A program made the position numbers and the translations under genes. Source: Pontiellaceae bacterium B1224 (GTDB taxonomy: Bacteria > Verrucomicrobiota > Kiritimatiellia > Kiritimatiellales > Pontiellaceae). Taken from it: a DNA stretch of 64,000 nucleotides. The stretch covers positions 62,001-126,000 of the forward strand of contig JAROBA010000001.1 in assembly GCA_029432815.1 (NCBI GenBank), in the 5' to 3' direction. Of this stretch, positions 3,524 to 62,280 are shown piece after piece. A model generated the notes under the pieces. It worked only from the letters and a program-made list of their open reading frames with translations, was not told the origin of the DNA and did not search any database. The first letter of the stretch is position 1. Each line of letters starts with the position of its first letter.

Positions 3524-3994
3524 AGGTGCCCATGCGTGATCGCGGACACTTAGACTATAATCAATATGCCCGGAATAGTTCCAATCATTGGAATCTTCAG
3601 CCAACCCTACCCGTACCGGATTCTGCCGAACATATTCCCATTTCTCGGAATAGGATTCGTTGGAACGAATCAGATGGTCAAATAATTCCTTCTGCCAAAA
3701 TGGCGCGTTAACCCGAGCAGAGGACACAGCTCTTTTGCCGTCCATTGCTTCCACGATCCTATCATTCTCGAAAGGGGCGTCCGGCTTTCTGCATCGGCAC
3801 AGAAGAAATGGACATGATCCGGCATAACGACATACGAACCAATCGCCCAGCCGTAGAGATTGAATGATTTCGCCCAATGCCGGCGCAGCATTTCGTGAAC
3901 GCCTGGGCGCAATAAAAGATCCCGGCGTTTATTTACGCAAAACGTAATAAAATATCGCGGGTGTGATTCGCTGTAGATGTTTACGTTCCTTCAT
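3506..3994 (-). pseudogene. REP-associated tyrosine transposase (RAYT, IS200-like Y1 family), frameshifted
   Basis: Reading from ATG at 3994 (Shine-Dalgarno GGAGGG just upstream), the three frames together give a RAYT of about 163 residues. The start is MKERKHLQRI. Next comes FITFCVNKRRDLLLRPGVHEML and the HUH metal site in VMPDHVHFF. The C-terminal block is FWQKELFDHLIRS and YVRQNPVRVGL. The ATG frame and the C-terminal frame are the same, but the central segment, including the HUH motif, is in another frame. The ATG frame meets a stop near 3930. Two offsetting frameshifts (near 3950 and near 3730) therefore inactivate it. It lies between REP pairs, the usual setting for a RAYT. The 15-bp palindrome TTCCAATCATTGGAA is inside the 3' part. 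Confidence 0.8.
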
Positions 3995-4008
3995 GCGACC
4001 CTCCTAAC

Positions 4009-4035
4009 GCGGCGGGGTCACGGCCCCCGCCCTAC
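4009..4035 (-). repeat. Single REP half-element
   Basis: On the minus strand this is GTAG followed by GGCGGGG-loop-CCCCGCC. It is the same hairpin as the right half of the neighbouring REP pairs and lies just upstream of the RAYT pseudogene start. Confidence 0.7.
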
Positions 4036-4044
4036 ACAACCCAT

Positions 4045-4119
4045 GTAGCCGAGGTCCTCGACCTCGGTGCAGACGCAAAGCCATTCCACCGAGCGGCGGG
4101 GTCTCGGCCCCCGCCCTAC
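4045..4119. repeat. REP pair, copy C
   Basis: Same architecture and nearly the same sequence as copy B: GTAG, the CCGAGGTC/GACCTCGG hairpin, a spacer containing GCAAAGCCATTCCACCGAG, then an inverted GC-rich hairpin ending in CTAC. Confidence 0.85.
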
Positions 4120-4128
4120 ACCCAACCT

Positions 4129-4202
4129 GTAGCCGAGGTCCCCGACCTCGGTGCGGATGCAAAGCCATTCCACCGAACGGCGGGGTCCCGCCTCCTCCCT
4201 AC
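4129..4202. repeat. REP pair, copy D
   Basis: Fourth copy of the pair, ending 8 bp before the radC stop codon. The right hairpin has mutations (CCTCCTCC in place of the GGCCCCCG block), so its stem is weaker. Confidence 0.8.
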
Positions 4203-4970: not shown

Positions 4971-6116
4971 TCACCTCGTTTTATAGTCTGTTACCTGTTC
5001 TTCAATCCGCAATCTTTCCTTGCGGAGTTCAGCTTCCAGCTGTTCTTTTGTCGGTAAAACCAGCTGATATTTTGCGGCAAATATCTGTTCGTTCTCTTCG
5101 CCTAAAATGTAGCGAACCACAGCATCGTTCTTCTCCGTACAAAGCAAGAGGCCGACGGTCGGGTTATCATCTTCTCCGGCTATTTCCCGGTCGAAATAAT
5201 TTACGTAAAGTTGCATCTGCCCCACATCGCCATGCGTTAGCTTTTGTGTTTTCAAATCGACAACCACGTAGCACTTTAAGCGGATGTGATAGAAAATCAA
5301 ATCCGGGTAAAAATGATCCCCGTCCAATGTGATCCGCATTTGCCGTGCAACAAACGCAAACCCCTGCCCCAGTTCCAACAGGAATTGTTGCAACGTTGAA
5401 ATCAATGCATCTTCAAGCGCACTCTCGGAAAGTTCGTGGGATTCAGGCAGATCAAGGAATTCCAGTACATACGGGTCTTTAATAACGTCTATCGGCCGTA
5501 GCGCTCCCGGCTCCGCTTCCAGTTGCGCCTGCATCTTTTCCTGCTCCTTGCTCTTCAGCAGGCGCTCGAAAAATAGCGAATGGATCTGACGTTCAAGCTG
5601 CCGAACGCTCCAACCATTGGAAGCGGCTTCGCGCTCATAATACGCACGCGCCGCCGGATGCTCCACCCGCATCAGCGCCCGATAGTGCGACCAACCCAGT
5701 GCTGGCATGAATCCTGCCGAATTCGCTACACAGTGTGTAGCGAATTCGGCAGGATGTGTGCCACCGACAGATTCTAGATTGTCTACACACTGTGTAGACA
5801 ATTCAGATCCTCTCTCTACGGAACGCTCTATGAAAACTAGGTAAAACTGGCGAAAGAGCTTTAAATTCGCAACTGAAAACCCTTTTCCGAAACGCTTGTT
5901 CAATTGAAAAGAAAGCCGATTCATCAGCTCACTTGCATATCCTGCCCGTTCTTCTCCTGCCTGAATTTCCTCCACAATTTCGCGACCAATCAGCCAATAG
6001 GCGGCAACCATTTCAGAATTAACAGTACGAACGACATTCGTTCGCGCCTGATCGAGAATGCTGACTACACGACCGAAGAGATCGTCACTATTAAAGGTTG
6101 AAGGGTTTCCAGACAT
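4971..6116 (-). CDS. PDDEXK nuclease family protein (DUF1016, YhcG-like)
   Basis: A 381-residue protein starting at the ATG at 6116 (Shine-Dalgarno AAAGGA); a longer reading would overlap dut and has no ribosome site. The N-terminal DUF1016 helical domain (about 10-200) has YWLIGREIVEE and LGWSHYRALMRV. The C-terminal PDDEXK nuclease domain (about 225-345) has FYPDLIFYH and VVVDLK, giving the Asp and the D-x-K pair. These proteins are thought to be DNA nucleases linked to mobile elements or recombination repair. Residues about 104-138 are a low-conservation linker whose DNA is made of two perfect palindromes. The first residues (MSGNPSTF) resemble those of RadC downstream (MSGNADTL) because both start codons sit in a copy of the same palindrome. 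Confidence 0.88.
   Translation of the reverse strand: MSGNPSTFNSDDLFGRVVSILDQARTNVVRTVNSEMVAAYWLIGREIVEEIQAGEERAGYASELMNRLSFQLNKRFGKGFSVANLKLFRQFYLVFIERSVERGSELSTQCVDNLESVGGTHPAEFATHCVANSAGFMPALGWSHYRALMRVEHPAARAYYEREAASNGWSVRQLERQIHSLFFERLLKSKEQEKMQAQLEAEPGALRPIDVIKDPYVLEFLDLPESHELSESALEDALISTLQQFLLELGQGFAFVARQMRITLDGDHFYPDLIFYHIRLKCYVVVDLKTQKLTHGDVGQMQLYVNYFDREIAGEDDNPTVGLLLCTEKNDAVVRYILGEENEQIFAAKYQLVLPTKEQLEAELRKERLRIEEQVTDYKTR
5711..5755. repeat. 45-bp perfect palindrome inside DUF1016 gene
   Basis: Two 22-bp arms (ATCCTGCCGAATTCGCTACA plus two more bases and the complement) are separated by a single base. It encodes roughly residues 120-135 of the linker between the two protein domains, in frame and without stops. 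Confidence 0.95.
5778..5802. repeat. 25-bp perfect palindrome inside DUF1016 gene
   Basis: Arms ATTGTCTACACA and TGTGTAGACAAT with a one-base centre, 22 bp from the 45-bp palindrome. Both share the CTACACA/TGTGTAG core, suggesting a common origin. Confidence 0.95.
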
Positions 6117-6171
6117 TGAATCCTTTCGTGATGAGTGAAACGTGAGGCGTGATTGCCTTTCAGTCACTCCT

Positions 6172-6609
6172 TTATTTTCCGGTTGATCCGAAACCGCCTT
6201 CGCCTCGTGTGGTTTCGGAGAGCTCAGTAACCATTTCATAAAAAATCGGGGAGCAGTCGCAGGCAACGACCTGAAAAAGGCGCTGGCCCTTTTCAGCGGT
6301 GTAGGATTCGGTTTTGATATTATCGCACATGGCCATGAGTTCACCGCGATAGCCGCCGTCGATCAGGCCGAGGGAGTTGGCGAGGCGAAGCGGAGTTTTG
6401 GAAATACTGGAGCGCGGCATCAGGAAATAGGCGCGGCCGTCTTCCGGTTCGCAGGCGATGCCGAGTTTGATGGCTTTGGTTTCCCCCGGCTCAATGGTGA
6501 GGTCTTCCAAAACATAGAGGTCGAGCCCCGCATCGCCTTCGTGGAAGTGACCATGATCAGAGTAAATTTCGCGGGCGGCATCGTTCAATGGTTTGATCTT
6601 AAGATTCAT
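6172..6609 (-). CDS. dut: dUTP diphosphatase
   Basis: A 145-residue dUTPase, the normal length of the homotrimeric family. It hydrolyses dUTP to dUMP and pyrophosphate, keeping uracil out of DNA and feeding dTMP synthesis. All five family motifs are visible: DAGLDL (1), PRSSI (2), GLIDGGYRGEL (3), GQRLFQ (4) and RGEGGFGSTG (5). The start has AAGGA 6 bp upstream. It is first in a minus-strand run with the PDDEXK nuclease (55 bp downstream) and radC, so a DNA-maintenance operon is plausible. It is divergent from the ABC transporter genes to the right. Confidence 0.95.
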   Translation of the reverse strand: MNLKIKPLNDAAREIYSDHGHFHEGDAGLDLYVLEDLTIEPGETKAIKLGIACEPEDGRAYFLMPRSSISKTPLRLANSLGLIDGGYRGELMAMCDNIKTESYTAEKGQRLFQVVACDCSPIFYEMVTELSETTRGEGGFGSTGK

Positions 6610-7551: not shown

Positions 7552-10145
7552 TGAGCCAACGCCTTTCCATGAATGACTTCAAGGGATTCTTCCGAACCCT
7601 GAAACTATTGCTGGTCACCGCCCGCCGCCGCGCAGCCGGACGCGCACTGCGGCAACGACAACTGACGAACCAGCGAACCGGCTCTCAATCGGATTCGCTG
7701 CGCGTTCTTGGATTCATCGGTATGCTGTTCATCATGGGCATGGTGCACTGCATGGCTGGCTATTCCATCCAGCGATACACGCAGGAAGCCCAACGGTATG
7801 ACGCCGAGCAAACAGGCTCCATTGTTGTCAGCCAGCATTTCTACAGGCGATTGGTAGAATTTAAAAATGCAGATCAGGACATCGAATGGCCGTTGTTTCT
7901 CGAAAAGAACGATTACTGGCTGGAAAACGAAGCCGAAAACCGGGAGGAAGCATACGGCGGCACGGAGCAGAAACACCGGGCCTTTCTTGAGAAAGCCGCA
8001 CAGGAACGCCCGCTGGAAGACTTTACCTCGCGATCTAAAATACGTCCCGGCCTGAAAGAAATTGGAGCATCCAATCCATTTGTTCTAACGGTGGGATCAC
8101 TCATCTTTATCTGGTGGTTAATGATGCTGATCTTTCAGGGAGAAGGCCTTGAACTCGACATCCAGCGACGGCGGCATCCCATGTGGGAATGGCTGCTCAG
8201 CCACCCGGTTCACCCAGGGGCTGTTTTCCTTGCCGAGATGCTCTCACCTATTACCGCAAACCCGGCTTATCTGGCCGCCCCCCTGTTTTCGGCCGTTCTT
8301 TTCGGGATTACGTACGGCGGGGAATTTGGATTTCTGGCCTTTTTCGTCATCGGCATTCCACTCACGATTGCGGCCGCATGCTTCGGGAAGTCACTCGAAA
8401 TATTCATCATGCTTCGGAGCAACGTGCGTAAACGCGGCGCCACCATTGGACTGATGAGCTGGTTCGGCTATGCCGCCTTCATCCTCTTTCTTTTCGGGGC
8501 CTACGCCGCGCCCCGAATCACGAATGTGCTGGGCTTCCTGTTTTATGATCTTTCCCAAACATTCCCCATCCCGATCATTCTTCCAATCATTGGAAACTGG
8601 GGCGGTGCATCCTCATTCTGGCTCGGTATGCTCTGCTGCTGGTTGCTCGCCGCGCTGCTCATCGGATTGGCCGTCCTGATCAGCGTGCGGGCCACCCGAA
8701 AAGGCCTCTCTGGAAACACCGGTTCCAACGAGCCTGCTGCATCCAGCAAAGGAGAAAAATGGATTGTCCGCCTGGGCCGGGATCCGCTCTACCGAAAAGA
8801 ACTGCTTTGGTTCATGCGCGACCGCAGCGCGATTGTTCAAGTGTTTCTCATCCCGATCACCATCGCCAGCGTTCAGCTTTTCAACCTTCGGAATGTGCTC
8901 GAACACGCCGACAACGCCTGGCATACACTTTCCGGAACGGCCGTGCTCTTCGGCACCTACTTTCTCTGGATACTCGGTCCTAAATCACTCACCTCCGAAG
9001 GCGCTGCACTTTGGATTGCCCAAACCTGGCCGCGCGGTATGGAAGATCTGCTCAAGGCCAAAGCCCGGCTCTGGTTCCTGATTTCCTCTATAGTCGTCAG
9101 CATGATCCTGCTGTTCGCCGCCATCCGCTTCCCATCTGATATCTGGAAACTATCATTAATCGCCCTCGGCTGGGCCGCTTTCGGCAGAAGCATGGCAGAG
9201 AAGTGCGTAACGCTCGTCACCATTACCAAAGAGTCTGGCGAAACCGAAAAGATCCCAGCCGGACGCCGCATGGCCGCGGCGCTGGGCATGCTCAGTTTCG
9301 GCATCGGCGTGCTAACGCAACAGTGGCACTTAGCCGTCATCGGAATTGTTTACTCCTGGATCACGGCGGCCGCGATGTGGCAAAACTTCCGTGCCCGCCT
9401 GCCCTACCTCTATGATCCATGGGCGGAAAAAGTTCCGCCCGCCCCGACCGTCATGCATGCCATGATCGCCATTAGTGTGCTGATCGAAGTCGGCGCCGTA
9501 TTTACCGGAATATTCACGATGGCAGCCAAAGACGGAAATATGATGGCCGGCCGAATGATTGCGTATGCCATTATATCGCTGGTGGTCATGTTCGTTACCA
9601 TGGGCATGATGGCCGATCGCTATCTCGCACCGCGCGACACGTGGTCGTGGAACAACAGTGTCGAAGAAAAGCGGCGGAACCGCTGGCTCTGGTGCGGGAA
9701 CCATTCCCATAAAAGTGCCTTCTTTCTTTCCTGCCTTCTCGGAGCCACGCTCGGCCTGCTCTGGGGGCTGACAGCCAACGGCTACATGGTTGTGCTGGGA
9801 CAGTTCGATACGTTCTCGGAAGTTATCCAAACATTGGAAGAATTTTTGAAGGCGCATCACGAAACTCGCGTCATCATGTTTATCGTTGCCGTTGGATTTG
9901 CCCCGCTGGCCGAGGAATATCTGTTTCGCGGCCTCCTCTTCCGGGCACTGGACCGCGAATGGGGCGGATGGAAAGCCCTGATCGGAAGCTCCGCCTTTTT
10001 TGCTATCTATCATCCGCCGATGGCCTGGCTGCCCGTTGGCCTTATGGGGTTGCTGAACGCGTGGCTCTTCAAGAAGACCGGCCGCCTCGCGCCAGCGGTA
10101 ATCCTGCATATGGTCTACAACACTGTCGTTCTGGCTTGGTGGTAA
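7551..10145 (+). CDS. ABC-2 type permease fused to CPBP intramembrane protease
   Basis: About 864 residues with many hydrophobic segments. The first ~600 residues form an ABC-2-like membrane domain with several predicted helices (for example around GMLFIMGMVHC, LTVGSLIFIWWLMM and AFILFLFGAY) and soluble loops. The last ~150 residues are a CPBP (CAAX protease/bacteriocin-processing) domain with the EExxxR motif in AEEYLFRGLLFRA (about 787-799), FAIYHPP and HMVYN, the usual Glu/His metal or catalytic residues. The partner ATPase is immediately upstream and overlaps by one base. Planctomycete/Verrucomicrobia-type proteins with this permease/CPBP layout are known. The protease could process the exported substrate or confer self-immunity; that is inference. 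Confidence 0.87.
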   Translation: MSQRLSMNDFKGFFRTLKLLLVTARRRAAGRALRQRQLTNQRTGSQSDSLRVLGFIGMLFIMGMVHCMAGYSIQRYTQEAQRYDAEQTGSIVVSQHFYRRLVEFKNADQDIEWPLFLEKNDYWLENEAENREEAYGGTEQKHRAFLEKAAQERPLEDFTSRSKIRPGLKEIGASNPFVLTVGSLIFIWWLMMLIFQGEGLELDIQRRRHPMWEWLLSHPVHPGAVFLAEMLSPITANPAYLAAPLFSAVLFGITYGGEFGFLAFFVIGIPLTIAAACFGKSLEIFIMLRSNVRKRGATIGLMSWFGYAAFILFLFGAYAAPRITNVLGFLFYDLSQTFPIPIILPIIGNWGGASSFWLGMLCCWLLAALLIGLAVLISVRATRKGLSGNTGSNEPAASSKGEKWIVRLGRDPLYRKELLWFMRDRSAIVQVFLIPITIASVQLFNLRNVLEHADNAWHTLSGTAVLFGTYFLWILGPKSLTSEGAALWIAQTWPRGMEDLLKAKARLWFLISSIVVSMILLFAAIRFPSDIWKLSLIALGWAAFGRSMAEKCVTLVTITKESGETEKIPAGRRMAAALGMLSFGIGVLTQQWHLAVIGIVYSWITAAAMWQNFRARLPYLYDPWAEKVPPAPTVMHAMIAISVLIEVGAVFTGIFTMAAKDGNMMAGRMIAYAIISLVVMFVTMGMMADRYLAPRDTWSWNNSVEEKRRNRWLWCGNHSHKSAFFLSCLLGATLGLLWGLTANGYMVVLGQFDTFSEVIQTLEEFLKAHHETRVIMFIVAVGFAPLAEEYLFRGLLFRALDREWGGWKALIGSSAFFAIYHPPMAWLPVGLMGLLNAWLFKKTGRLAPAVILHMVYNTVVLAWW

Positions 10146-12834: not shown

Positions 12835-14790
12835 TTATAACTCCCGCCGCTTCTCGATCAGTTGCTCCACGACCGATGGATCGGCCAGTGTTGAGACATC
12901 CCCAAGGTTATCGGTTTCGAGACTGGCAATTTTTCGAAGGATTCGGCGCATAATTTTCCCGGAGCGCGTTTTCGGCAGGCCGGGTGCAATCAGAATCTGA
13001 TCAGGCACCGCAATCGGGCCAATATGGGTCCGGACTTCATTCCGCAATTCGCCGATCAGCTCAGCATCATCCTCAAAACCGTCTTTCAGCAGAACATACG
13101 CAAAGATGCCCTGCCCTTTCACTTCGTGCGGGAAGCCAACCACAGCGGCCTCGGCACAACCCGGATGGCTGACCAATGCCGATTCAACCTCGGCTGTTCC
13201 CATCCGATGCCCGGAAACATTGATGACGTCATCCACACGGCCGGTGATCCAATAGTAGCCATCCTCATCACGGCGGCAACCGTCGCCGGTAAGATAATAA
13301 CCGGGGAATGGATCGAGATAGGTTTGTTCAAAGCGCTGATGATCGCCCTGAATGGTGCGGGCCATTGCCGGCCACGGGCTCTTGATGGCCAACAGACCGG
13401 AGACTCCATTTCCTTTTATCTCATGACCAAGCTCATCGAGCAGTACCGGTTCAATTCCAAAAAACGGAAAAGCAGCAGAGCCCGGTTTGGTGGGCGTTGC
13501 TCCGGGCAATGGGGTAATCATGATACCGCCGGTTTCGGTCTGCCACCACGTATCGACAATATTGCAGCGACCTTCGCCGACCACATCATGATACCAGTGC
13601 CAGCTTTCCGGATTGATCGGCTCGCCCACACTGCCGAGCACGCGCAGGCTGGAGCGATCGTATTTTTTCACGAACTCATCTCCAAGGCGGGCGATGGCGC
13701 GGATGGCGGTCGGGGCGGTATAAAACTGAGTGATCTTATGCCGCTCAACCATATCCCAGTAGCGCCCGGCATCCGGATACGTCGGAATGGACTCAAACAT
13801 GACCGTCGTGGCACCGTTGGCAAGCGGACCGTAGACCACATAACTGTGGCCGGTGATCCATCCGATATCGGCTACGCAGGCAAAAATATCATCCTCGCGA
13901 TAATCAAAAACATAGCGATGCGTCAGCATGGTATAGAGCAGATAGCCTGCGCTGGTATGAGCAATCCCTTTCGGTTTTCCGGTCGAACCTGAAGTATAGA
14001 GCAGGAACAGGGTATCCTCGCTGCCCATATGCTCAATCGGACAATAGGGCCTCTCGCGTTCCATCGCCGCACCGAGGTCAATATCGCGCGGTTCATAAAA
14101 CGGAACTTTTGCTCCGGTATGGCGCACCATAAAAACGTGCTTAACCGTCGGGCAGGCCATGACGGCTTCATCAACCGGGCGCTTCAACGGAATCACCTTC
14201 CGGCCGCGCATCCCTTCATCGGCGGTGATGACCGCCCGGCACCGGGCGTCCTGAATACGGTCGCGCAACGCTTCCGCACTGAATCCGGCAAACACAACAT
14301 TGTGCACCGCGCCGATGCGGGCACAGGCCAGCATGGCAAATGCGGCTTCGGGAATCATCGGCATATAAATGGCGACGCGGTCGCCTTTTCGAATACCGTT
14401 GTGCCGAAGCACGTTGGCCAACCGACACACTTCGCGGTGGAGCTCGCGATAGGTGATACGCCGAACATTACCAGGCTCATCGCCTTCCCAGAGAATGGCA
14501 ACCTTATCTCCGCGCGTGGCCAGATGACGATCGACGCAGTTATGACAGACATTCAATTTTCCGCCGAGAAACCAGGCCACCATACCGTTTTCAAAATCGC
14601 AATCGCTCACTTGCGAGAATTTGTGAAACCAATCAATCTGAACTTCCGCCTGACTTCCCCAGAATGCTTCCGGGTTTTCCAGACTCTGGGCATACATTTT
14701 TTCATAACTTCCAAGGGTTGGATAAAAGGCCCCCTCGCTGACCCGTGCGGGAGGAAGAAAAGGACCTGAGCTGTTCGATTGATCTGCCAT
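12835..14790 (-). CDS. acs: Acetyl-CoA synthetase (AMP-forming)
   Basis: A 651-residue ANL-superfamily enzyme that makes acetyl-CoA from acetate, ATP and CoA through acetyl-AMP. Motifs: P-loop-like [15 protein letters not shown] (about 268-282), [28 protein letters not shown] (hinge Asp region), and the catalytic Lys in [13 protein letters not shown] near the C-terminus, which is also the usual acetylation site. The length matches the family. Start: ATG with GGAGATATAG upstream. A large two-copy palindrome lies between its start and the end of the PilT-like gene. Confidence 0.96.
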
Positions 14791-14854: not shown

Positions 14855-14901
14855 GTTTTTCCACCCATTGGAAAAACGCGGCTTCCAATGGGTGGAAAAC
14901 C
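14855..14901. repeat. Long hairpin built from two 15-bp palindromes
   Basis: TTCCACCCATTGGAA (14859-14873) and its complement TTCCAATGGGTGGAA (14883-14897) face each other. They are extended by A/T runs and CGCG flanks, so the whole stretch can fold into one long hairpin upstream of acs. A third related palindrome, TTCCAATGTCTGGAA, is at 14932-14946 directly after the stop codon of the PilT-like gene. Confidence 0.8.
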
Positions 14902-14947
14902 GCGTTTATTCAATTTCGGGTGACAGGAATCTTCCAATGTCTGGAAA

Positions 14948-18912: not shown

Positions 18913-18943
18913 TCTAATTGGTTTCCAACGATTGGAAAACGGT

Positions 18944-24202: not shown

Positions 24203-24253
24203 TAGCGCCGCTTTCAGGTGCCTTTGCAGATTGGTGCCTGAAGACGGCACTAC
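24203..24253. repeat. REP-like inverted repeat over the exbD stop codon
   Basis: On the minus strand it starts GTAGTGCCG, continues with CTTCAGGCACC, and after a short loop returns as GGCACCTGAAAGCGGCGCTA. The TAG of the GTAG foot is the exbD stop codon. The other end has decayed to TTTAG. Confidence 0.65.
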
Positions 24254-24684
24254 ATTTCTTTTCGACTGAAACCCAATATGTCCACATCAGCTTTTGCACA
24301 GGCATCCATAACGTCAATAATCCGGTAATGCAAAGCATCCTGACTGGGGAGCAGGTTTACATGGAATTCCGATCCCTGCGTTGCAGCAACCCGGCGCAGC
24401 CCTGAAATCTCAACAATTAATTCCGGTAACTCTCGATCCTCACCCGAAAACTGTATGCCTTCAAGCTTCACGGAACCATCGGATTGGATTTCAATGAGCG
24501 CCTCAACCGGAATCTCCTTCATGATTCGTTTATCCGAAATGGGAATGACAAATGACAAATCGCCTTCCCGACGAATCAGCGATGCCGTGACCATGAAATA
24601 GACCAGCAGGAGAAAAACCACGTCAATCAATGACGCCACCTGCAATTTAATATCCAGCCTGTCATTCAACCCTGCCAATTTCAT
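24250..24684 (-). CDS. exbD: ExbD/TolR family protein, type B, copy 2
   Basis: 144 residues: short cytosolic N-terminus, one membrane helix (about 18-40) and a periplasmic domain. The conserved membrane Asp of the proton channel is D21 in ASLIDVVFLLLVYF. It is clearly paralogous to the type B protein at 25418-25852 (shared RIIDVMDACA, EIPVE and TASLI). ExbD proteins couple the proton gradient to envelope machines together with ExbB. No exbB is adjacent on this unit; the nearest is 1.6 kb upstream. It has its own leader with paired palindromes and AAGGAG, after a terminator. Confidence 0.9.
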   Translation of the reverse strand: MKLAGLNDRLDIKLQVASLIDVVFLLLVYFMVTASLIRREGDLSFVIPISDKRIMKEIPVEALIEIQSDGSVKLEGIQFSGEDRELPELIVEISGLRRVAATQGSEFHVNLLPSQDALHYRIIDVMDACAKADVDILGFSRKEM

Positions 24685-24786
24685 AACGATCTCCTTCCGA
24701 TATTTGGAACATAGAGGATACGTTTCCCAAGATTGGAACCTTTACAGAATAGTTCCAGAGGTTGGAATATTTCAGCGACTGGAACA
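24685..24786 (-). promoter_or_regulatory. Leader of exbD type B copy 2 with paired palindromes
   Basis: Lies between a terminator and AAGGAG/ATG. It contains two copies of the 15-bp palindrome class, at 24724-24738 and 24753-24767, start-to-start 29 bp. The same arrangement and much of the sequence recur at 25259-25361. This is a probable promoter/operator region, inferred from position. Confidence 0.45.
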
Positions 24787-24820
24787 GAAAAAAAGTCGCT
24801 CCAAAAGAATGGAACGACTT
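24787..24820 (-). terminator. Rho-independent terminator after exbD type A copy 2
   Basis: On the minus strand AAGTCGTTCC and GGAGCGACTT pair around an 8-base loop and run into seven T. It separates two exbD genes that would otherwise look like one operon. Confidence 0.9.
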
Positions 24821-24847
24821 CGAAACTATTCACGAAATTAAGGATTT

Positions 24848-25258
24848 CTACTCCTCAAAAACGGAATAGATCAGGTCCTGAGCACCAACTGCGGCACATG
24901 CAAGCGTGATCTGTTCATTCGTTTTATACTTCGTCTCGGAGTCGGCACGGATCAGGACGCGTAAATCAGGATCGGCATAGATTTCCATCTCAATCATATC
25001 CTGCACTTCCTCAATCGTCCTCGGGGTCGTATCAGACTGGATGAAAAACTTTTCATCTTTACTGACCGAAATCATCAGACGCCCTGTGGTATCGGGCGGT
25101 ACCTTTCCGTAGGCCGCCGTTGGGATCGCAACAGTAGGTTTCTCGTCAATGACCTGCGAAGCGACAATAAAGAAGATCAGTAACAGGAAGACCATGTCAA
25201 TCATCGGTGACATATCGAGTTCAAGATCTTCGCTGATACTCTTCTGATGCAGTCTCAT
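24848..25258 (-). CDS. exbD: ExbD/TolR family protein, type A, copy 2
   Basis: 136 residues with a single membrane helix whose proton-relay Asp is D21 in DMSPMIDMVFLLLIFF. Most of the protein matches copy 1 at 25859-26266 (shared IVASQVIDEKP, TTGRLMISVSKDEK, TPRTIEEVQDMIEM and the end YSVFEE). Differences are clustered at the N-terminus. It has its own leader and terminator. Role: proton-driven stator component with ExbB; the energised partner is unknown. Confidence 0.92.
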   Translation of the reverse strand: MRLHQKSISEDLELDMSPMIDMVFLLLIFFIVASQVIDEKPTVAIPTAAYGKVPPDTTGRLMISVSKDEKFFIQSDTTPRTIEEVQDMIEMEIYADPDLRVLIRADSETKYKTNEQITLACAAVGAQDLIYSVFEE

Positions 25259-25361
25259 AACGATCTCCTCAGGAAGTTAGGAACAAAGAGGATACGTTTC
25301 CAAAAGCCGGAACCTTTGCAGAAAAGTTCCAAGCATCGGAATATTTCTCAGACCGGAGCAT
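25259..25361 (-). promoter_or_regulatory. Leader of exbD type A copy 2 with paired palindromes
   Basis: Similar to 24685-24786: GAGGATACGTTTCC, then palindrome-like sites at 25298-25312 and 25327-25341, again 29 bp apart, and AGGAG before the ATG. This duplicated leader suggests separate, co-ordinated expression of the second exbD pair. Confidence 0.45.
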
Positions 25362-26266: not shown

Positions 26267-26320
26267 AGCACTTCCCTACTTTCCAGGGGTTGGAAATAAG
26301 AACGTCGAAAAAAGAAAGGC

Positions 26321-31257: not shown

Positions 31258-31768
31258 TAACAAATCCCAAACTGAATCCACGTTCTTACTCGTCTGTAAC
31301 CACTCGAAAGAAGTTCCCAGACACCAAAACGGGCAACAACCAATCTGTCATACCCCTCTTCCGGATCTCAGAAGGTGAGAGTCCAGAAATATGGATAAAA
31401 CATACGAAAAAAAAACCCTGTGAGAAAGAGCTAAGTTAGTAAAAAATTAAATTTGGACAGCAAATATAAATTACCCAACACGGAACTCCTCCCAAATAAT
31501 CGACTTACAACAAATATTACCAATGGGTGCTTCTCTATTTATACGTATGTCGTACCCGATACATTTGAGTTTTTACTCTATTTTTTTTCTGAAAACAACC
31601 TTGGCGGACCCGCAATTTTCCAATCTCTGGAAAAAGGCGACTTGTATTTTCCTGTCATCGGAACCACTATCCCGCGCTTTTCCCACTGGATTGCTGGAAT
31701 ATCGAATTGGCAAATATAATTTTTTCCGCCCTGTTCCACCCATCCTACTATGCATTAATCCAAACAGA
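31258..31768. other. AT-rich intergenic region between divergent genes
   Basis: About 510 bp without a convincing gene. The frame of the downstream synthase-like protein stays open here, but its translation is hydrophobic and irregular, with no ribosome site at its first ATG (31523). One palindrome copy, TTCCAATCTCTGGAA, is at 31618-31632. Promoters for the TPR operon (left) and the methyltransferase-fold gene (right) presumably lie here; I cannot place them with confidence. Confidence 0.5.
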
Positions 31769-32452: not shown

Positions 32453-32511
32453 CGCGCTCTTGTATTTTCCAACCGTTGGAAACATGATGCGCGGCTTAAT
32501 CAGGAACCGAT

Positions 32512-36089: not shown

Positions 36090-37955
36090 TCAATTATAGA
36101 GGCTTTTCGGTCCCGGTCCGGTTGGATAGACCCGTGTGCAGGTATCATCCAGAAAGTTTCCGACCTGCAGTTTCCGCAGGTTTCCAAGGTTTGGAAAAAT
36201 CCAGGCGGCAGATGCCTGCTGCTGAATCACCTCACCTCGTTCGTCAGTAAGGATCAGCAGATAATCGGAATATTTCCGACCGAGCGGTTGGTCGGTATCA
36301 TAGCTCATCAGCTCCACCGGGCTTCCTTTAAACACATGGGAGCGGCGGTTTTCTTTGCCGGGAACAAAAGAGCTGGTCTGATGATCCAGCAGAATATATT
36401 TCCGGTCATCAATACGCTGCTGACCGAATATAAAGAGCTCCGCATAAACGGCATGTTCATAGGCCCGAGCCGAGGTCTGCCTGATTTTTGCACCAAACGT
36501 ATAGTCCAGCAGCCTGGGCGGAATCTCATCCAGATAAGGCGTCGTTTTAATAATCCGTTGATCACTCTGTTTTGTCACCGAGCAAATAAACTCCGGCAGC
36601 TCCGCCAGCCCCACAAAGTTCCGATCATTGGAAGTCAGTTCTGCAAGCGGCAGCCGAACCAGCTCTCCATCGGCCGACTTCAGCACAACCGCATTTCCGA
36701 GCACGCTCACAAATTCCGCTTCAAACAGTTCGCCGTCCAATCCACTCCAGAGATGCGGTTCCACCAATTGCACCGGATCAGGTGCTTTTTCCAGAGATTG
36801 GAACGCGGCATCGGATCGCTCGGCAGGCGGAATATCCCGGAAGACCGGGCCGCCGGTCAATGACACCTGATCATAGGTCAACCATTCATAGATACGGTCT
36901 TTCAAATCATGGCTGGGTTCGGAGGTTTTAAACATGGGAAGAATCGGAGCCTGCTCCCGGTTCAGCTCATAGTCCGCTCCCTGCACCTCAACGGTCAGCA
37001 TCGAGCAGAACGTACCGCCCGGAACTTCCCCGATGATCACTTCCATATCCAGCGGCTCCCCTTTCTTCAGCGTAATCCAGTCGCCCACCACAGCCGTATT
37101 ATTCCCGAGCGTGTAGATTCGCGACTTAGAGGAAGAGCTCTGCCATCCGCCCGCGGCGGAGCAAATGATATCCTGCGGCGACCACGTACTACCCGGCCAG
37201 CAGGCCACCAGCACTTCTTTTCCATCGACCCGCACCGCCATAACATCGTCCCCGTGCCCCCAGAAACGGAAGGTGATATCTTCGTGATAGACGAGCTGCC
37301 CCTTGTAATGCGCCAGCCAGCAATAGCCCAGCGTATCGGCCTCATCAAATGCGGCCGGCGCCACCGACGATTTAACCGGCGGCACCATAAAGCATTCCGC
37401 ATGAAGCTGTTTTTTAGATCGGTAAAACCGAGACAGTTTCGATGTCTTCCAGTCGTATCGGACAAAACGGGCCACCTCCGCCACAAACTGATGCGGGTCC
37501 ATAATCATCGTGCCGCCTTCACGATCCCGCTTAAAATCATAGAAGGTCCCCACAAAACCGAAGCCGGTTCCGAAGTCATCGCCCACGAGAGACTGCTCCG
37601 TTTTGGGCAGCTCAAAATCGACCGAGAAGTCCCCCAACGACAGACCTTCCCCTCCCCCCAGCGAAGACACCACAACCTCCGGACGATCCAGCGAATTACG
37701 CGGAACCGTAATGCGGCTGATCGACCGCTCCGGCGTGGAGGCATCCCTGATTTTCACCTGCGGCTTCATCAGCTCCAGCTCAATCGGGGGGCGCACCACC
37801 GCCGGTCTGAAAATGATGGGATCCGGCTTTTTCTGAACAACAAAAAATATCGAAGTTGCAACCACACCAATTCCGAGATGAAAGAGCAGGCTGATCATCC
37901 AACCACTGGAAGTTCCTTTAACCACGCCGCGATAGGTTTCAATTATCTGTTTCAT
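36090..37955 (-). CDS. Membrane-anchored protein with SHD1-like domain (TonB-like N-terminus)
   Basis: 621 residues. One N-terminal membrane helix (about 18-40) is followed by a Pro-rich periplasmic stretch (PAVVRPPIELELMKPQ) as in TonB-type proteins. A central beta-rich region (about 140-340) is followed by an SHD1-like segment near 415-455 (FEAEFVSVLGNAVVLKSADG, then LPLAELTSNDRNFV), a small domain frequent in Planctomycetes and relatives. No catalytic motif is seen. It lies 10 bp after the VWA-like gene with AGGAG before the ATG, so they form one unit. I do not recognise a named function; an envelope-bound structural or energy-transducing role is only a guess. Confidence 0.72.
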   Translation of the reverse strand: MKQIIETYRGVVKGTSSGWMISLLFHLGIGVVATSIFFVVQKKPDPIIFRPAVVRPPIELELMKPQVKIRDASTPERSISRITVPRNSLDRPEVVVSSLGGGEGLSLGDFSVDFELPKTEQSLVGDDFGTGFGFVGTFYDFKRDREGGTMIMDPHQFVAEVARFVRYDWKTSKLSRFYRSKKQLHAECFMVPPVKSSVAPAAFDEADTLGYCWLAHYKGQLVYHEDITFRFWGHGDDVMAVRVDGKEVLVACWPGSTWSPQDIICSAAGGWQSSSSKSRIYTLGNNTAVVGDWITLKKGEPLDMEVIIGEVPGGTFCSMLTVEVQGADYELNREQAPILPMFKTSEPSHDLKDRIYEWLTYDQVSLTGGPVFRDIPPAERSDAAFQSLEKAPDPVQLVEPHLWSGLDGELFEAEFVSVLGNAVVLKSADGELVRLPLAELTSNDRNFVGLAELPEFICSVTKQSDQRIIKTTPYLDEIPPRLLDYTFGAKIRQTSARAYEHAVYAELFIFGQQRIDDRKYILLDHQTSSFVPGKENRRSHVFKGSPVELMSYDTDQPLGRKYSDYLLILTDERGEVIQQQASAAWIFPNLGNLRKLQVGNFLDDTCTRVYPTGPGPKSLYN

Positions 37956-41340: not shown

Positions 41341-41554
41341 AACATACCGTCCTCTGGTTATGTTCGGGTTTGATGAAGAAAGGAGGCAAATTGCCTTAGA
41401 ACTCCGAGGCGGTCAAGCTCCTCTGATGGATTTCCAGTCATTGGAAATTTTGCATTGCCCGTAACCTTTCCAATCGCCATATTTTACACGATTTTTTGAA
41501 CGTTTCTCCAAACGAAACGTCTGAAGACCAAACCTTATTAAGGAAGAAAAAGTT

Positions 41555-43080: not shown

Positions 43081-43100
43081 AAAGTTCCAGACTCTGGAAC
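43079..43100 (-). terminator. Terminator of tsaD made from a 15-bp palindrome copy
   Basis: GTTCCAGAGTCTGGAAC forms a 7-bp-arm hairpin on the minus strand, followed by TTTTT. The run overlaps the tcdA stop codon, so it lies exactly between the convergent genes. Confidence 0.75.
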
Positions 43101-47074: not shown

Positions 47075-47352
47075 GAAGGCATTCTTCATGCTTATCAATA
47101 TAAAATAATAACATGATTCAGATGTTTTTTCCAGGCATTGGAAACAAAGCCCCTCCCTCTCTACGGCAGCAGGCTGGAAGCAGGCGGTACGGCGTGTGAA
47201 ATGAATCTTTCATCCACCTTTTTCAGCATCACTTTCACTGGGAATGATTTTGACTGTGGATAAGAGAATTCAGACGAAAAATCTACTGACAGAAATAGTT
47301 CAAAACTTGCGAAGGGTGAGGGTTTATAACAATTTCACATAGCTGTCGGTAG

Positions 47353-48172: not shown

Positions 48173-48321
48173 TTCTCTGTCTCCTGTTCTGATTTCCATT
48201 GATTGGAACGAGCCGTTCCACACGCTTTCTCAAGACATGCAAGACTATCCTTGTATTCGAATAGCTCCGCAACTGTTTTTTGAGTGTAACTGACGCACAC
48301 GATCGTCTACCCTCCCGGCTC

Positions 48322-52831: not shown

Positions 52832-52867
52832 AGAACAGCGACTTTCAATCCTTGGAAAAAGCGACTG

Positions 52868-54682: not shown

Positions 54683-56395
54683 TTATTCTGCGGAGCGGAT
54701 ATCCTGAATCTGCAACTGCAGCGTGGTATTCCCCCTCCACGTATTTTCCTTCAGCGAAAATGCAACATCCAGTTTACCGTTTGGAAGTTTACTGAGGGGA
54801 TAGTTAAAAGCAATGGCCTGAAACTTCCAACCCTTGGAAGCCAGGGTCAGCTTAAGATGTTTTTCCCCCACCACGCGCGGTGCTTCGGCCAGATCAACCT
54901 GCAACAGGCCCCAGACCGGTTCGGGGTTATCCTGCCCAAACGGACGGAGTTGCTTGAGTTCGTCAAAAAAATCCCTGCTTATTTCGTCTGCCGTCAGAAT
55001 CGCATCGATCTGCTGCACGGGGGAGAGATCCTGCTCCCCCAGCACCTGGGTGACGGCCGCATTGAAGTCCACTTTAAAATTTTCGAGTGTGCCCGGCTTT
55101 ACTTCAAGCCCGGCGGCCATTTTGTGCCCGCCGAATTTATTCAGATACTCCTCGCAGCGCTGCAGGCCATCGAGCAGATTATATTCTTCAATACTGCGGC
55201 AGGATCCCCGCGCGCTGCCGTCGGCTTCGATTCCCATAATAATGGCCGGACGATTGTAGTGCCGCGAAACACGCGAAGCCACGATGCCCACCACGCCGGG
55301 ATGCCACCCCTCTTTTGCCACAACCAGCCCGAAGTGTTTTTCCGGGTCGAAATAGGCATCGATTTCTTCAAACGCTTCATCGGCCATTTCGCGTTCAATA
55401 CGGCGGCGCTCGGTGTTGGTTTCATTCAAAAGCTTTGCAATCCGCTGCGCTTCGGGTGCACTTGCGGTGGTGAGCAACTGTAGCGCCTGCATCGGCTGGC
55501 CGATACGGCCGGCCGCATTAATGCGCGGCCCAAGCTGAAATCCCAGATGAAACGTTTCCAGTTCGCCCTTAACACCGGCCACGGTTTTAAGCGCCTGCAA
55601 ACCGACCCATTTTGTGCTGCCAAGCTGTTCGAGGCCATGCCGCACCAGAATTCGGTTTTCATCCAGCAGCGGCACAATATCGGCCACCGTTCCGAGGGCC
55701 ACAATATCGAGATAGTGCCTGAGTTCAACGCCAAGGGCCGACGGCTTCTTCAATTTTCGGCCGCGTTTCACCAATGCATGGGCGAGTTTAAAAGCAACCC
55801 CGACCCCCGAAAGGATTTCCAGCTTCGGGCAATTTCCAAGCTTTGGATTAATCAGCGCGAAGGCCGGTGCCGTCTGCTCTTCGGGCTCGTGGTGGTCGGT
55901 CACAATGACATCAATGCCGCGTGCCTGCACCGCCTGCACACTCTCCACCGAATTCACGCCGCAATCGACCGATACCACCACCGTTGAACCGTGCTCTTCC
56001 AGACAGCGTTCCAGGGCGTCGGCCGACAGACCGTAGCCTTCGTCCAGCCGATCAGGAATGAACGGATTAACATCGCCCCCCAGTGCCGTAAAAATTTTCG
56101 TAAGCAATGCGGCAGAAGTTACTCCGTCCACATCGTAGTCGCCAAATACCGTAATGCTCTCGCCGGCATCGATCGCTTTCCAAAGTCTGGAAACCGCCTT
56201 TTCCATGTCGGGCAGCAGAAAGGGATCGGACAGGTTGGTCAAGCGTGGCGCAAAAAACGCTTTCGCTTCTTCCAATGTCTGGAAACCGCGCAGTACCAGC
56301 AAGCGGGCAATGGGAACCGGGAATCCGCTTGCTGCACTCAGTGTTTTGACCCGCTCTTCATCGGCGGACCGGATGTTCCAACGTTTGGAAGCCAT
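54683..56395 (-). CDS. recJ: Single-stranded-DNA-specific exonuclease RecJ
   Basis: 570 residues, normal length. DHH/DHHA1 nuclease that degrades ssDNA 5'-to-3' in recombination and mismatch repair. Motifs: GDYDVDGVTSAALL (about 81-94), SVDCGVNS, VTDHHEPEE (DHH, about 159-167), GPRINAAGRIGQP, and the DHHA1 end block GGHKMAAGLEV. The ATG is one base after the stop of the preceding gene and has no clear ribosome site, so coupling is likely. Four copies of the 15-bp palindrome lie in the gene, one covering codons 3-7. Confidence 0.95.
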   Translation of the reverse strand: MASKRWNIRSADEERVKTLSAASGFPVPIARLLVLRGFQTLEEAKAFFAPRLTNLSDPFLLPDMEKAVSRLWKAIDAGESITVFGDYDVDGVTSAALLTKIFTALGGDVNPFIPDRLDEGYGLSADALERCLEEHGSTVVVSVDCGVNSVESVQAVQARGIDVIVTDHHEPEEQTAPAFALINPKLGNCPKLEILSGVGVAFKLAHALVKRGRKLKKPSALGVELRHYLDIVALGTVADIVPLLDENRILVRHGLEQLGSTKWVGLQALKTVAGVKGELETFHLGFQLGPRINAAGRIGQPMQALQLLTTASAPEAQRIAKLLNETNTERRRIEREMADEAFEEIDAYFDPEKHFGLVVAKEGWHPGVVGIVASRVSRHYNRPAIIMGIEADGSARGSCRSIEEYNLLDGLQRCEEYLNKFGGHKMAAGLEVKPGTLENFKVDFNAAVTQVLGEQDLSPVQQIDAILTADEISRDFFDELKQLRPFGQDNPEPVWGLLQVDLAEAPRVVGEKHLKLTLASKGWKFQAIAFNYPLSKLPNGKLDVAFSLKENTWRGNTTLQLQIQDIRSAE

Positions 56396-60554: not shown

Positions 60555-60560
60555 CAGGTT

Positions 60561-60908
60561 CTACCCCAGCGTTTTAATCCAGGCTGACAACCCCTGCACC
60601 AGTGGTTCCGCATCGGCCAGACGATCTTCTTTTGCCGTATTTTCCACTTCGAGCCCGAGCACTGAAATTTCCGGCAGACCAATCGTTCCCCCCATCCCTT
60701 TGATGGAATGAGCGGCCATCCGCATCATTTCAGGATCCCCGTTTTCCAGGCCCTGTTCCAGCTCGTCGCTTAACCGCCGCAGTTCTTCAATAAAAATTTC
60801 AATCAGTTCCTCGTCAACTTCGTCCGTATCGACCACAAACTGGGGTTTTCTGGCATCGAGACCAGGAATCAGTTCATCCACCCATTCCGTATTACCCAGA
60901 ATATTCAC
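60561..60908 (-). CDS. HPt (histidine phosphotransfer) protein
   Basis: 115 residues. HPt helix with the phospho-His in AAHSIKGMGGTIGLPE (His about 67), preceded by a long acidic helix. Starts with GTG at 60908, with AGGAGG 8 bp upstream. It is cytosolic and accepts phosphate from a hybrid kinase, here not adjacent, passing it to a receiver. The receiver of the gene 6 bp downstream is the likely target. It heads the polysaccharide-regulation operon. Confidence 0.93.
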   Translation of the reverse strand: MNILGNTEWVDELIPGLDARKPQFVVDTDEVDEELIEIFIEELRRLSDELEQGLENGDPEMMRMAAHSIKGMGGTIGLPEISVLGLEVENTAKEDRLADAEPLVQGLSAWIKTLG

Positions 60909-60990
60909 TATACATTCCTCCTACATAAAAGGTTGTTTAAAAGCCGTTAAATCATAACAGCATTGTGCATGGAGGCAAATCCCCAGTGGA

Positions 60991-62247
60991 TCATTTTCCA
61001 GGGATTGGAAAATCGAATTTCCGGCGTGCCATCGGGGCGCTTTCCACCGCCGCCTCAATTCCGATTTCGGCATGGTTCACCCGTTCACCAAACTTTTTTT
61101 CAATCCAGTTCACGCAGCTATCATAGATGTGGTTGTATTCACTGCAGGCGGTTTCCATATCGGTCACGAGATCAAATGAAACCTTATAAGGTGCCGCATC
61201 CCCTTCAGCACGCAGATCGTGCACATCTACCAGACAGGACTCATTTTTGATGTGCTCATGAATCACGCGATTCAGCTCTTCAAAGATGGTGTGCGACCGA
61301 TCAACCGGATCGACATGCGCCAACGCACGCCACTTCAGCCGTTTCTCCACAGCACGTTCCGCGATTTCCGAAATTTCGTGAGCCTCCACCAGACTCAGTT
61401 TGGCATCCACTTCAATATGGAACGAAACCATTTTCACATCGCCATATTGATGCACCATAATTTCATGGGCCCCCATCACTTCATCCACCGAAACCGCCGT
61501 TTCATAAATTTTCCGAACCTCGGAAGGATCCGGTTTCTGACCCAGCAGAATATCGATGGCCTCGCGGGCATAGGAAATTCCCGTGTAGAGAATAAAGAGT
61601 GCAACGCCAATGGCCGTCCACCCGTCAACCGCTCCCCAGCCGAACCGGGCACTCACCAATGCCACCACCACCATCAATGTGCAGATGATATCAAACGTAT
61701 GGTTCCAGGCATCGGCTTCCAACACCTGCGATTTTGTAAGTTTTGCCAGCTGCCGCGCAAAGACCGCCATCCAGGTTTTCACCGCCACGGTGATGCCCAC
61801 CGCAACCAACAACCACGGAGGTGCCACAATCGGTTGCGGATTAATCAGACGCATCACCCCCGACTTCGCCACTTCAGCCCCAACCAGAATCAGCGCAATC
61901 GCCAACACAAGGGTCGCTACAGCTTCGATTCGGCCATGACCGAACGGATGGTCTTCATCGCGCGGTTTGCGCGACCATTGGAACCCGAGCGCAATCACCA
62001 ATGAGCTTCCCATATCCGTCAGGTTGTTCGTGGCATCAGCAATCATCGAGACCGATCCCGACACCAGCCCCAGCCAAAACTTGGCGGCGGCCATAAAGGC
62101 GCTCATTACGGTGCTGGTCCAGCCGGCCAGCATACCCAGACGCGTGCGGTTATCATGACTGTCCGGCGCCTGATCCGGATTCATTACCTTCCGCACTAAA
62201 AACCCCATCATCGGGCACGGCATTTTCTGTTTTTTATTTTCAATCAT
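60991..62247 (-). CDS. Cation diffusion facilitator (CDF) transporter
   Basis: About 418 residues from the ATG at 62247. The start is uncertain: ATGs at 62268 and 62223 are also possible, but the first lies in a terminator hairpin. Six hydrophobic helices. TM2 has SMIADATNNLTDMG, where D-x3-D metal ligands are usually HD/DD. TM5 has EADAWNHTFDI. The DEDHPFGHGRIEAV motif is conserved. The C-terminal cytosolic domain has VMGAHEIMVHQYGDVKMVSFHIEVD. It exports Zn, Fe, Mn or a similar divalent metal. The C-terminus is long (to ~410). The last codons (FPIPGK) are encoded by a palindrome copy at 60996-61010. Confidence 0.9.
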   Translation of the reverse strand: MIENKKQKMPCPMMGFLVRKVMNPDQAPDSHDNRTRLGMLAGWTSTVMSAFMAAAKFWLGLVSGSVSMIADATNNLTDMGSSLVIALGFQWSRKPRDEDHPFGHGRIEAVATLVLAIALILVGAEVAKSGVMRLINPQPIVAPPWLLVAVGITVAVKTWMAVFARQLAKLTKSQVLEADAWNHTFDIICTLMVVVALVSARFGWGAVDGWTAIGVALFILYTGISYAREAIDILLGQKPDPSEVRKIYETAVSVDEVMGAHEIMVHQYGDVKMVSFHIEVDAKLSLVEAHEISEIAERAVEKRLKWRALAHVDPVDRSHTIFEELNRVIHEHIKNESCLVDVHDLRAEGDAAPYKVSFDLVTDMETACSEYNHIYDSCVNWIEKKFGERVNHAEIGIEAAVESAPMARRKFDFPIPGK

Positions 62248-62250
62248 ACG

Positions 62251-62280
62251 TAAAAAAGGGCGTTCCAATCATTGGAACGC
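62251..62280 (-). terminator. Terminator made from a palindrome copy
   Basis: On the minus strand GCGTTCCAATGATTGGAACGC forms a 10-bp-arm hairpin followed by CCTTTTTT. It terminates the exported TPR-like gene ending at 62317 and lies just upstream of the CDF gene start. Confidence 0.85.

What the first reader, a model, noticed from the sequence alone, without database searches (positions are those of the whole stretch)
3579..62277. A 15-bp palindrome, TTCCA[A/G]NNN[T/C]TGGAA, scattered through the whole window
Seen directly. Exact TTCCAA-N3-TTGGAA begins at 3579, 8581, 17415, 18923, 24151, 32467, 36182, 39397, 47581, 54826, 56376, 57529 and 62263 (13 copies). The looser form begins at 4954, 14932, 24753, 26281, 31618, 36789, 41432, 43085, 47129, 56179, 56270 and 60996. 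At least ten more differ by one base (for example 5608, 14859, 14883, 20921, 36619, 48194). With twelve fixed bases, about 0.004 exact copies are expected in 64 kb of even composition. Copies sit in coding sequence, between genes, in terminators and over start codons. Inside genes 15 bp keeps frame and reads as several peptides (FQSLE, FQTLEE, SNDWN), so protein selection cannot explain it. It resembles a highly iterated palindrome (such as HIP1 in cyanobacteria) or a DNA-uptake or host-factor site rather than a normal operator. I know of no description of it.
Basis: partly seen in the sequence, partly recalled or inferred. Interest (0 to 1): 0.85.

Follow-up and report, generated by a model that had tools for sequence, protein, structure and literature searches.

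The report
Genome-wide phased palindrome in Kiritimatiellia
A 15-letter mirror-image DNA word is repeated about two thousand times in one bacterium and hundreds to thousands of times in many of its relatives, and in sister lineages its copies sit whole turns of the DNA helix apart, so it probably marks where an unidentified protein grips and shapes the chromosome.

Summary
The window has 25 exact TTCCARNNNYTGGAA (0.03 expected), its genome 2,088 (reversed control 3). 36 of 131 sampled genomes of its class (Kiritimatiellia) hold 50 or more, 0 of 256 sampled elsewhere in the phylum (my tally). Both halves are needed at one fixed spacing, with a G/C centre. Between species at 77-78% identity, 12 of 43 aligned sites keep all twelve arm bases (2.9 expected). 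In the window's genome sites are scarcer in divergent gaps and crowd behind stop codons. In other families and in IMG/VR contigs, neighbouring sites are mostly whole helical turns apart (21, 31.5, 42 bp), even inside genes of the single-contig genome G081; the window's own genus shows no such phasing. 150 array-neighbour proteins share no family. Best reading: genome-wide binding sites of a cooperative, dimeric, architectural DNA-binding protein. The protein was not found: Lrp/AsnC, ParB, HU and ComEC do not separate site-rich from site-poor genomes; AbrB-type, XRE and N6/N4-methyltransferase families are missing from some site-rich genomes. No description of the motif turned up in the open-licence library.

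The parts
3579..3593 (.). exact site TTCCAATCATTGGAA
4954..4968 (.). site TTCCAGACATTGGAA, 2 bp behind the stop codon of the minus-strand gene 4971-6344
5608..5622 (.). one-mismatch site
8581..8595 (.). exact site
9825..9839 (.). one-mismatch site
14709..14723 (.). one-mismatch site
14859..14873 (.). one-mismatch site of a local cluster
14883..14897 (.). one-mismatch site of a local cluster
14932..14946 (.). site TTCCAATGTCTGGAA, 1 bp behind a stop codon
17415..17429 (.). exact site, in a called gene
18923..18937 (.). exact site, 6 bp behind a stop codon
20921..20935 (.). one-mismatch site, 7 bp behind a stop codon
24151..24165 (.). exact site; the aligned places in G225 and G245 each hold it with one mismatch
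24695..24767 (.). cluster of three sites (24695, 24724, 24753; 29-bp steps) between two exbD-like genes
25298..25341 (.). two weaker sites (25298 two mismatches, 25327 one mismatch) in the second copy of a 118-nt repeat that holds the cluster
26281..26295 (.). site TTCCAGGGGTTGGAA, identical in G225 and G245
31618..31632 (.). site, in a called gene
32467..32481 (.). exact site; arms kept in G225 and G245 while the spacer changed
36182..36196 (.). exact site in a called gene, identical in G225 and G245
36619..36633 (.). one-mismatch site
36789..36803 (.). site TTCCAGAGATTGGAA
39397..39411 (.). exact site; not kept in G225
41432..41446 (.). site; G225 and G245 hold other one-mismatch forms at the same place
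43085..43099 (.). site TTCCAGACTCTGGAA
45202..45216 (.). one-mismatch site
47129..47143 (.). site TTCCAGGCATTGGAA
47581..47595 (.). exact site, 1 bp behind a stop codon; not kept in G225 or G245
48194..48208 (.). one-mismatch site, exact in G245
52843..52857 (.). one-mismatch site, 10 bp behind a stop codon
54825..54839 (.). exact site
55834..55848 (.). one-mismatch site
56178..56192 (.). site TTCCAAAGTCTGGAA
56270..56284 (.). site TTCCAATGTCTGGAA
56376..56390 (.). exact site, 6 bp behind a stop codon
57529..57543 (.). exact site
60996..61010 (.). site TTCCAGGGATTGGAA
62263..62277 (.). exact site inside a longer hairpin; on the minus strand it is followed by TTTTTT (terminator-like)
   Evidence: sequence printed; hairpin energy

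Best explanation
TTCCA[A/G]NSN[T/C]TGGAA is the genome-wide recognition site of one sequence-specific, homodimeric DNA-binding protein that works as an architectural (nucleoid-type) protein rather than as a gene-specific regulator. Each 15-bp site takes one dimer; in the sister lineages examined, several dimers bind cooperatively on one face of the helix at 2-, 3- or 4-turn steps and probably wrap or bridge the DNA. Shown: genome-wide density, fixed spacing, dyad symmetry, G/C centre, more arm conservation at orthologous places than the surroundings predict, gene-agnostic placement, helical phasing in other families and in IMG/VR contigs. Inferred: that a protein does the binding, that it is cooperative, and that its job is chromosome organisation. 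The protein is unidentified.
For: Both half-sites at exactly N5: 154 pairs against 0-2 for each other spacing from 0 to 13. Centre base G/C in 98% of 83 strict sites. Orthologous places: 12 of 43 aligned sites have no arm change (2.9 expected from other 12-base patterns of the same alignments), 23 of 43 at most one (10.5 expected), while in the 24 that still count as sites the spacer changed at 22 of 72 bases and the flanks at 203 of 854. Phasing at 10.5 bp (within 1.25 bp of a whole turn, 24% expected): G081 adjacent pairs 12 of 15; IMG/VR contigs 31 of 42; spacings not selected by the scan in public genomes 16 of 18; G081 coding pairs R=0.79, n=34. In G000, 22 of 51 intergenic sites lie within 20 bp behind a stop codon, 5.3 expected, and divergent gaps have 1.24 sites per kb against 3.53 tandem and 2.94 convergent. 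150 array-neighbour proteins: no Pfam family in more than 2.
Against: No protein was found. The window's own genus shows no helical phasing (9 of 35, equal to chance), so the cooperative part is not shown for the organism of the window. Scarcity in divergent gaps is seen in G000 only: in G081 there are just 12 intergenic sites, and of 62 arrays of other genomes between two called genes 15 lie in divergent and 16 in convergent gaps. At orthologous places 7 of 43 sites meet an alignment gap, against 3-5% of other places, so turnover is real. Non-adjacent pairs and sites shared by G225 and G245 are not independent. Gene calls were a home-made ORF picker. Nothing was measured at the bench.
Confidence: 0.52

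Rival explanations
1. Operators of a very large regulon of a cooperative transcription factor (Lrp/AsnC- or LysR-like), which acts on nearby promoters.
For: 15-bp dyads in clusters at two or three turns are described for Lrp-type targets (passages of PMC2995911, and PMC10201364). Arrays of other genomes are not scarce in divergent gaps (15 of 62).
Against: In G000 sites are scarcest in divergent gaps, and most lie in genes, in all frames; array neighbours share no family. The AsnC-like protein of the class is found in 59 of 63 genomes, site-rich and site-poor alike, with a closely similar HTH. LysR was not tested.
Confidence: 0.16
2. A DNA-uptake signal: naturally competent cells prefer DNA that carries the palindrome, and uptake bias has spread it.
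For: ComEC in 42 of 45 genomes; copies in coding and 3'-end DNA; two of the smallest genomes (G297, G389) have almost no sites and no ComEC hit.
Against: ComEC in 18 of 20 site-poor genomes; G118 has 370 sites and no ComEC hit. Perfect dyad symmetry and whole-turn spacing, also in IMG/VR contigs, are not features of the uptake signals that I recall.
Confidence: 0.14
3. A HIP1-like element made or maintained by DNA methylation and repair.
For: Genome-wide palindrome with few two-mismatch copies relative to exact ones; patchy distribution, as for HIP1 (abstract and section headings of PMC4390886; sections 15 and 13).
Against: PF01555 methyltransferases missing from 6 of 18 site-rich genomes; position 5 (A) varies more than position 2 (T), 18 against 2 of 107 one-mismatch copies, against a CCA-N5-TGG core; methylation does not explain helical phasing. 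Other methyltransferase families untested.
Confidence: 0.09
4. A REP/MITE-like mobile repeat or local tandem duplication.
For: Some arrays contain duplicated units, and a 118-nt stretch with the window cluster 24695-24767 has a second copy.
Against: Linkers and spacers differ between copies; only 15-19 bp are shared; flank composition is near background beyond about three bases.
Confidence: 0.05

Closest known systems
HIP1 and alternate highly iterated palindromes of cyanobacteria
   Same: Palindrome spread over the whole genome, patchy between related species.
   Different: HIPs are GC-rich 5- to 8-base words at 1000-2000 per Mb tied to methyltransferases (PMC4390886: abstract, and section 15); this one is interrupted, one third GC in its strict arms, about 390 per Mb, phased in sister lineages, and not tied to the one methyltransferase family tested.
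Lrp/AsnC-family multi-site targets
   Same: 15-bp dyads, clusters, spacing of two or three turns (passages).
   Different: Those described are control regions; here sites number hundreds to thousands, in G000 and G081 mostly in coding DNA, and the AsnC protein found across the class does not track them.
AbrB TGGNA-N5-TGGNA sites (Bacillus)
   Same: TGGNA half-sites five bases apart (pseudo-consensus in a passage of PMC11497800).
   Different: Here the half-sites are inverted; AbrB/MazE-domain proteins are missing from 8 of 27 site-rich genomes.
DNA uptake sequences (Neisseria, Pasteurellaceae)
   Same: Hundreds to thousands of copies, in genes and behind genes (recalled).
   Different: Non-palindromic words (recalled); no helical phasing known to me.
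Noc/SlmA/MatP-type chromosome sites
   Same: Palindromic sites of a chromosome-organising protein (recalled).
   Different: Far fewer copies (recalled); a second ParB does not track the sites. Ter exclusion in G081 is unclear: 7 sites of at most one mismatch in the sample beside the skew flip at 3.39 Mb, 1 and 1 in the next two.

Membership tests
Highly iterated palindrome (HIP) class | palindrome far above expectation, genome-wide | tested here: met
   2,088 against 3 for the reversed pattern
Highly iterated palindrome (HIP) class | short GC-rich word at 1000-2000 per Mb | tested here: not met
   interrupted 15-mer, one third GC in the strict arms, about 390 per Mb (definition from PMC4390886)
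Highly iterated palindrome (HIP) class | cognate DNA methyltransferase present where frequent | tested here: inconclusive
   PF01555 missing in 6 of 18 site-rich genomes; other families not tested
DNA uptake sequence | competence channel (ComEC) present in site-rich genomes | tested here: met
   24 of 25 site-rich genomes, but also 18 of 20 site-poor
DNA uptake sequence | preferential uptake of site-bearing DNA | not testable with these tools
   needs a transformation assay
Lrp/AsnC operator | 15-bp dyads in clusters at 2-3 helical turns | tested here: met
   in sister families and IMG/VR contigs, not in the window's genus
Lrp/AsnC operator | family member whose presence or HTH tracks the sites | tested here: not met
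   59 of 63 genomes; 50 aligned, HTH closely similar in site-rich and site-poor genomes of the genus
AbrB site | AbrB-domain protein in site-rich genomes | tested here: not met
   missing from 8 of 27 at E<=0.001
ParB/Noc site | second ParB-type protein in site-rich genomes | tested here: not met
   more than one hit in 7 of 25 site-rich and 5 of 20 site-poor genomes
XRE (HTH_3) operator | HTH_3 protein in site-rich genomes | tested here: not met
   none in 3 of 16 site-rich genomes at E<=0.001
LysR operator | LysR protein that tracks the sites | not tested
REP/MITE | shared flanks between copies | tested here: not met
   flank composition near background beyond about three bases in G000

The most novel reading that the evidence does not exclude
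Much of a bacterial class uses, and repeatedly loses, a sequence-addressed chromosome scaffold: a dedicated protein binds hundreds to thousands of palindromes, laid down in helical register through genes and gaps alike, so that the DNA text itself carries an architectural code under selection, and phages of these hosts carry dense arrays of it.
Probability: 0.33. Interest if true: 0.92.

Novelty: new variant of a known kind. Interest (0 to 1): 0.8.

Why it matters
Genome-wide iterated motifs that also fill coding DNA are few (HIP1, uptake sequences, Chi/KOPS; recalled), and most lack a settled mechanism. Bacterial nucleoid proteins are mostly thought of as weakly specific (recalled); a thousand-site, high-specificity one would change that picture.

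Tried and rejected
Protein-level cause: rejected, all frames used. RNA hairpin or terminator: the bare site folds at only -3.3 kcal/mol and 11 of 58 intergenic sites of G000 have a run of five T within 20 nt on either strand (no shuffled control made); a few, such as 62263, do sit in a longer terminator-like hairpin. Binder candidates by phylogenetic profile: AsnC, ParB, HU, ComEC, AbrB/MazE, XRE, N6/N4 methyltransferase; none tracks the sites. These rest on Pfam hits at E<=0.001 in partly incomplete genomes; LysR, TetR, MarR, LacI, GntR, C5 and other methyltransferases were not tested. Autoregulation lead in site-poor genomes: among 19 loci compared, the one strong match between different genomes is a four-gene cluster shared by G300 and G050; not followed. 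A replacement palindrome in site-poor genomes: none in 50 kb of G050, only low counts of GC-rich repeats in 39 kb of G087 (small samples). Literature: listings showed no description of the motif; only open-licence PMC papers are held.
Full report
WHAT WAS CHECKED. Shuffles give 0.03. With the strict arms TTCCAA/TTGGAA the window has 13 exact and 25 one-mismatch copies, 11 of the latter being the R/Y variant. The whole assembly (5,377,058 bases, 204 contigs) has 2,088 copies, the reversed pattern 3, about 390 per Mb.

ANATOMY. In 291,805 bases of this genome (window plus neighbouring and other contigs, 274,321 of the main stretches unmasked) there are 83 strict and 107 one-mismatch copies against 0.02 and 0.7 expected; 59 of the 107 differ by A to G at position 6. 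TTCCA and TGGAA pair at N5 154 times, at each other spacing from 0 to 13 at most twice. The centre base is G or C in 98%, the most frequent spacer is TCA/TGA (24 of 83), and T is preferred one and two bases outside. Least variable are T2, C3, C4 and their partners (2, 4 and 0 of 107), while A5 (18) and A6 (66) vary more. So the unit is a dyad, as read by a symmetric dimer. An open scan over 5-base inverted repeats and spacers 0-12 puts this motif or its inner frame first in the samples of G000, G081, G225, G035 and G012.

DISTRIBUTION. Of 387 genomes drawn from the phylum, 36 have 50 or more copies; all 36 are among the 131 of the window's class, none among the 256 others, where the highest count is 16 (my tally; numbers of genomes recounted). 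Within the class it is patchy: 2 to 2,106 among ten genomes of the window's genus, 0 to 1,977 among 28 with the centre fixed to S. Small genomes tend to have few, but so does G050 with 4.3 Mb (11). G035 contains a contig of 1,265,434 bases, the N50 given for Pontiella agarivorans NLcol2 (passages of PMC10880615), so the window's genus is most likely Pontiella. G081, one contig of 3,882,676 bases, fits the 3.88 Mb given there for Tichowtungia aerotolerans; that identity is inference.

SELECTION. 43 site instances of G000 could be aligned to G225, G245, G035 or G380 (18, 15, 8, 2; identities 0.77-0.78). 24 are still sites, with at most one mismatch, at the aligned place (8, 11, 5, 0). The fair comparison is with all other 12-base patterns of the same alignments: no arm change in 12 of 43 against 2.9 expected, at most one in 23 against 10.5, at most two in 29 of 43 against 47-51% expected. 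So arms are kept more than their surroundings, but 7 of 43 sites meet a gap, more than the 3-5% elsewhere, and some are plainly lost (39397, 47581). In the 24 retained ones the spacer changed at 22 of 72 bases and the flanks at 203 of 854, so these are not simply conserved blocks; the low arm change there (16 of 288) is partly forced by the filter and is not evidence by itself. Instances shared by G225 and G245 are not independent.

PLACEMENT. With home-made gene calls, 54 of 83 strict sites of G000 lie in genes (coding fraction 92.5%), 27 between genes, 2 on edges. In G081 43 of 47 strict sites lie in genes, no intergenic excess. In G000 intergenic density is 3.53 per kb in tandem gaps, 2.94 in convergent, 1.24 in divergent (58 sites); in G081 0.50, 0.21 and 0.33 (12 sites) and in G012 1.15, 5.03 and 0.83 (9 sites). 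In G000 22 of 51 intergenic sites fall within 20 bp behind a stop codon against 5.3 expected; G225 5 of 20 (1.9), G245 4 of 12 (1.1), G035 2 of 7 (0.7). Of 202 arrays in other genomes and IMG/VR contigs 135 overlap a called ORF, which is unreliable at high GC; of the 62 others with both neighbours called, 31 lie in tandem, 16 in convergent, 15 in divergent gaps. So promoter avoidance holds for G000 only. Coding sites use all frames: 46, 52, 34 of 132 in G000, 44, 32, 22 of 98 in G081. The 21 samples of 20 kb from G081 hold 0 to 11 sites of at most one mismatch. Of 150 proteins beside arrays (75-420 aa, the first 150 by array size) no Pfam family occurs in more than two, and flanking proteins formed few small homology clusters. 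This does not look like a regulon.

HELICAL REGISTER. In other families sites come in arrays of 2-8, often within a longer dyad TTTTCCAANSNTTGGAAAA and with differing linkers. Because selected 29-33 bp, I scored only spacings outside that range there: 16 of 18 lie within 1.25 bp of a multiple of 10.5 (24% expected). In IMG/VR contigs scanned for spacings 16-105: 31 of 42, Rayleigh R 0.67. In G081, adjacent pairs: 12 of 15, R 0.87 (all); all coding pairs within 250 bp: R 0.79, n 34, not independent. G032 and G318, with six pairs each, are suggestive only (R 0.67, 0.68). In the window's own genus: 9 of 35, R 0.13, no phasing. So the register is a property of the system in several lineages that Pontiella has relaxed or never had.

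PHAGES. Two IMG/VR contigs carry 8 and 7 copies (at most one mismatch) about 0.6 kb upstream of a terminase gene that is followed by a Mu-type portal gene, so at least these are phage DNA. The other contigs were not systematically checked for viral genes.

THE MISSING PROTEIN. Profiles over site-rich and site-poor genomes: AsnC/Lrp in 59 of 63, 50 aligned (one of them, from G074, a different shorter protein; G297 cut short), with closely similar HTH in both groups of the genus; ParB in 44 of 45, extra hits in 7 of 25 site-rich and 5 of 20 site-poor; HU in 45 of 45; ComEC in 42 of 45; AbrB/MazE domain missing from 8 of 27 site-rich; XRE from 3 of 16; N6/N4 methyltransferase from 6 of 18, and below the cut-off in G245. 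Thresholds and incomplete assemblies could hide a member.

MECHANISM. I read the sites as positions where dimers of one protein sit and, in the sister lineages, contact each other along one face of the helix. Lrp-type proteins are the closest working likeness: clusters of dyads at two or three turns (passages of PMC2995911; PMC10201364). What it works like is thus fairly clear; membership in that family was tested by the member found across the class and not met. Because sites ignore gene function and fill coding DNA, a structural role in the nucleoid is the most likely use; uptake and a global regulator remain possible.

NOVELTY. No paper in the held library contains the motif in five spellings, or joins Kiritimatiell- with a relevant palindrome (listing of 4); a half-site search returned 98 papers, of which the 30 listed look unrelated by title. 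The word-start 'palindrom' is absent from the main texts of two Pontiella papers (PMC7356697; PMC10880615; term searches). Subscription papers were not searched.

Noticed in passing
G061 (same phylum, other class), whole genome: The reversed control pattern AAGGTYNNNRACCTT occurs 55 times in 2.4 Mb, against 0-6 in the other genomes of the table: possibly another iterated palindrome.
   Followed up: no
window 24250-27094: Four exbD/tolR-like genes in a row beside a motA/exbB-like gene, with two families of direct repeats (300 nt, 82%, 1,011 apart; 118 nt, 77%, 574 apart); the 118-nt repeat holds a site cluster that is weaker in its second copy.
   Followed up: partly
L115 3034-3330 and L116 2786-2977: Two Mu-like phage contigs carry arrays of 8 and 7 copies (at most one mismatch), among the longest seen, about 0.6 kb upstream of the terminase gene.
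   Followed up: partly
G000 C142:17155-17379 and relatives: An AsnC/Lrp-like protein occurs in nearly all genomes tested of the class; in G000 its presumed recognition-helix stretch (EDVKQQITEFEK) has no arginine, so DNA binding is doubtful.
   Followed up: partly
window 4971-6344: DUF1016/YhcG PDDEXK nuclease-like gene with a motif copy 2 bp behind its stop codon.
   Followed up: no
G404 C1:1736101-1737609 and 2933735-2935243: Two pairs of ParB-domain hits with the same layout, which suggests a duplicated element.
   Followed up: no
G115: Nine MazE/AbrB-domain hits in a 2.7-Mb genome, the most of the 47 searched.
   Followed up: no
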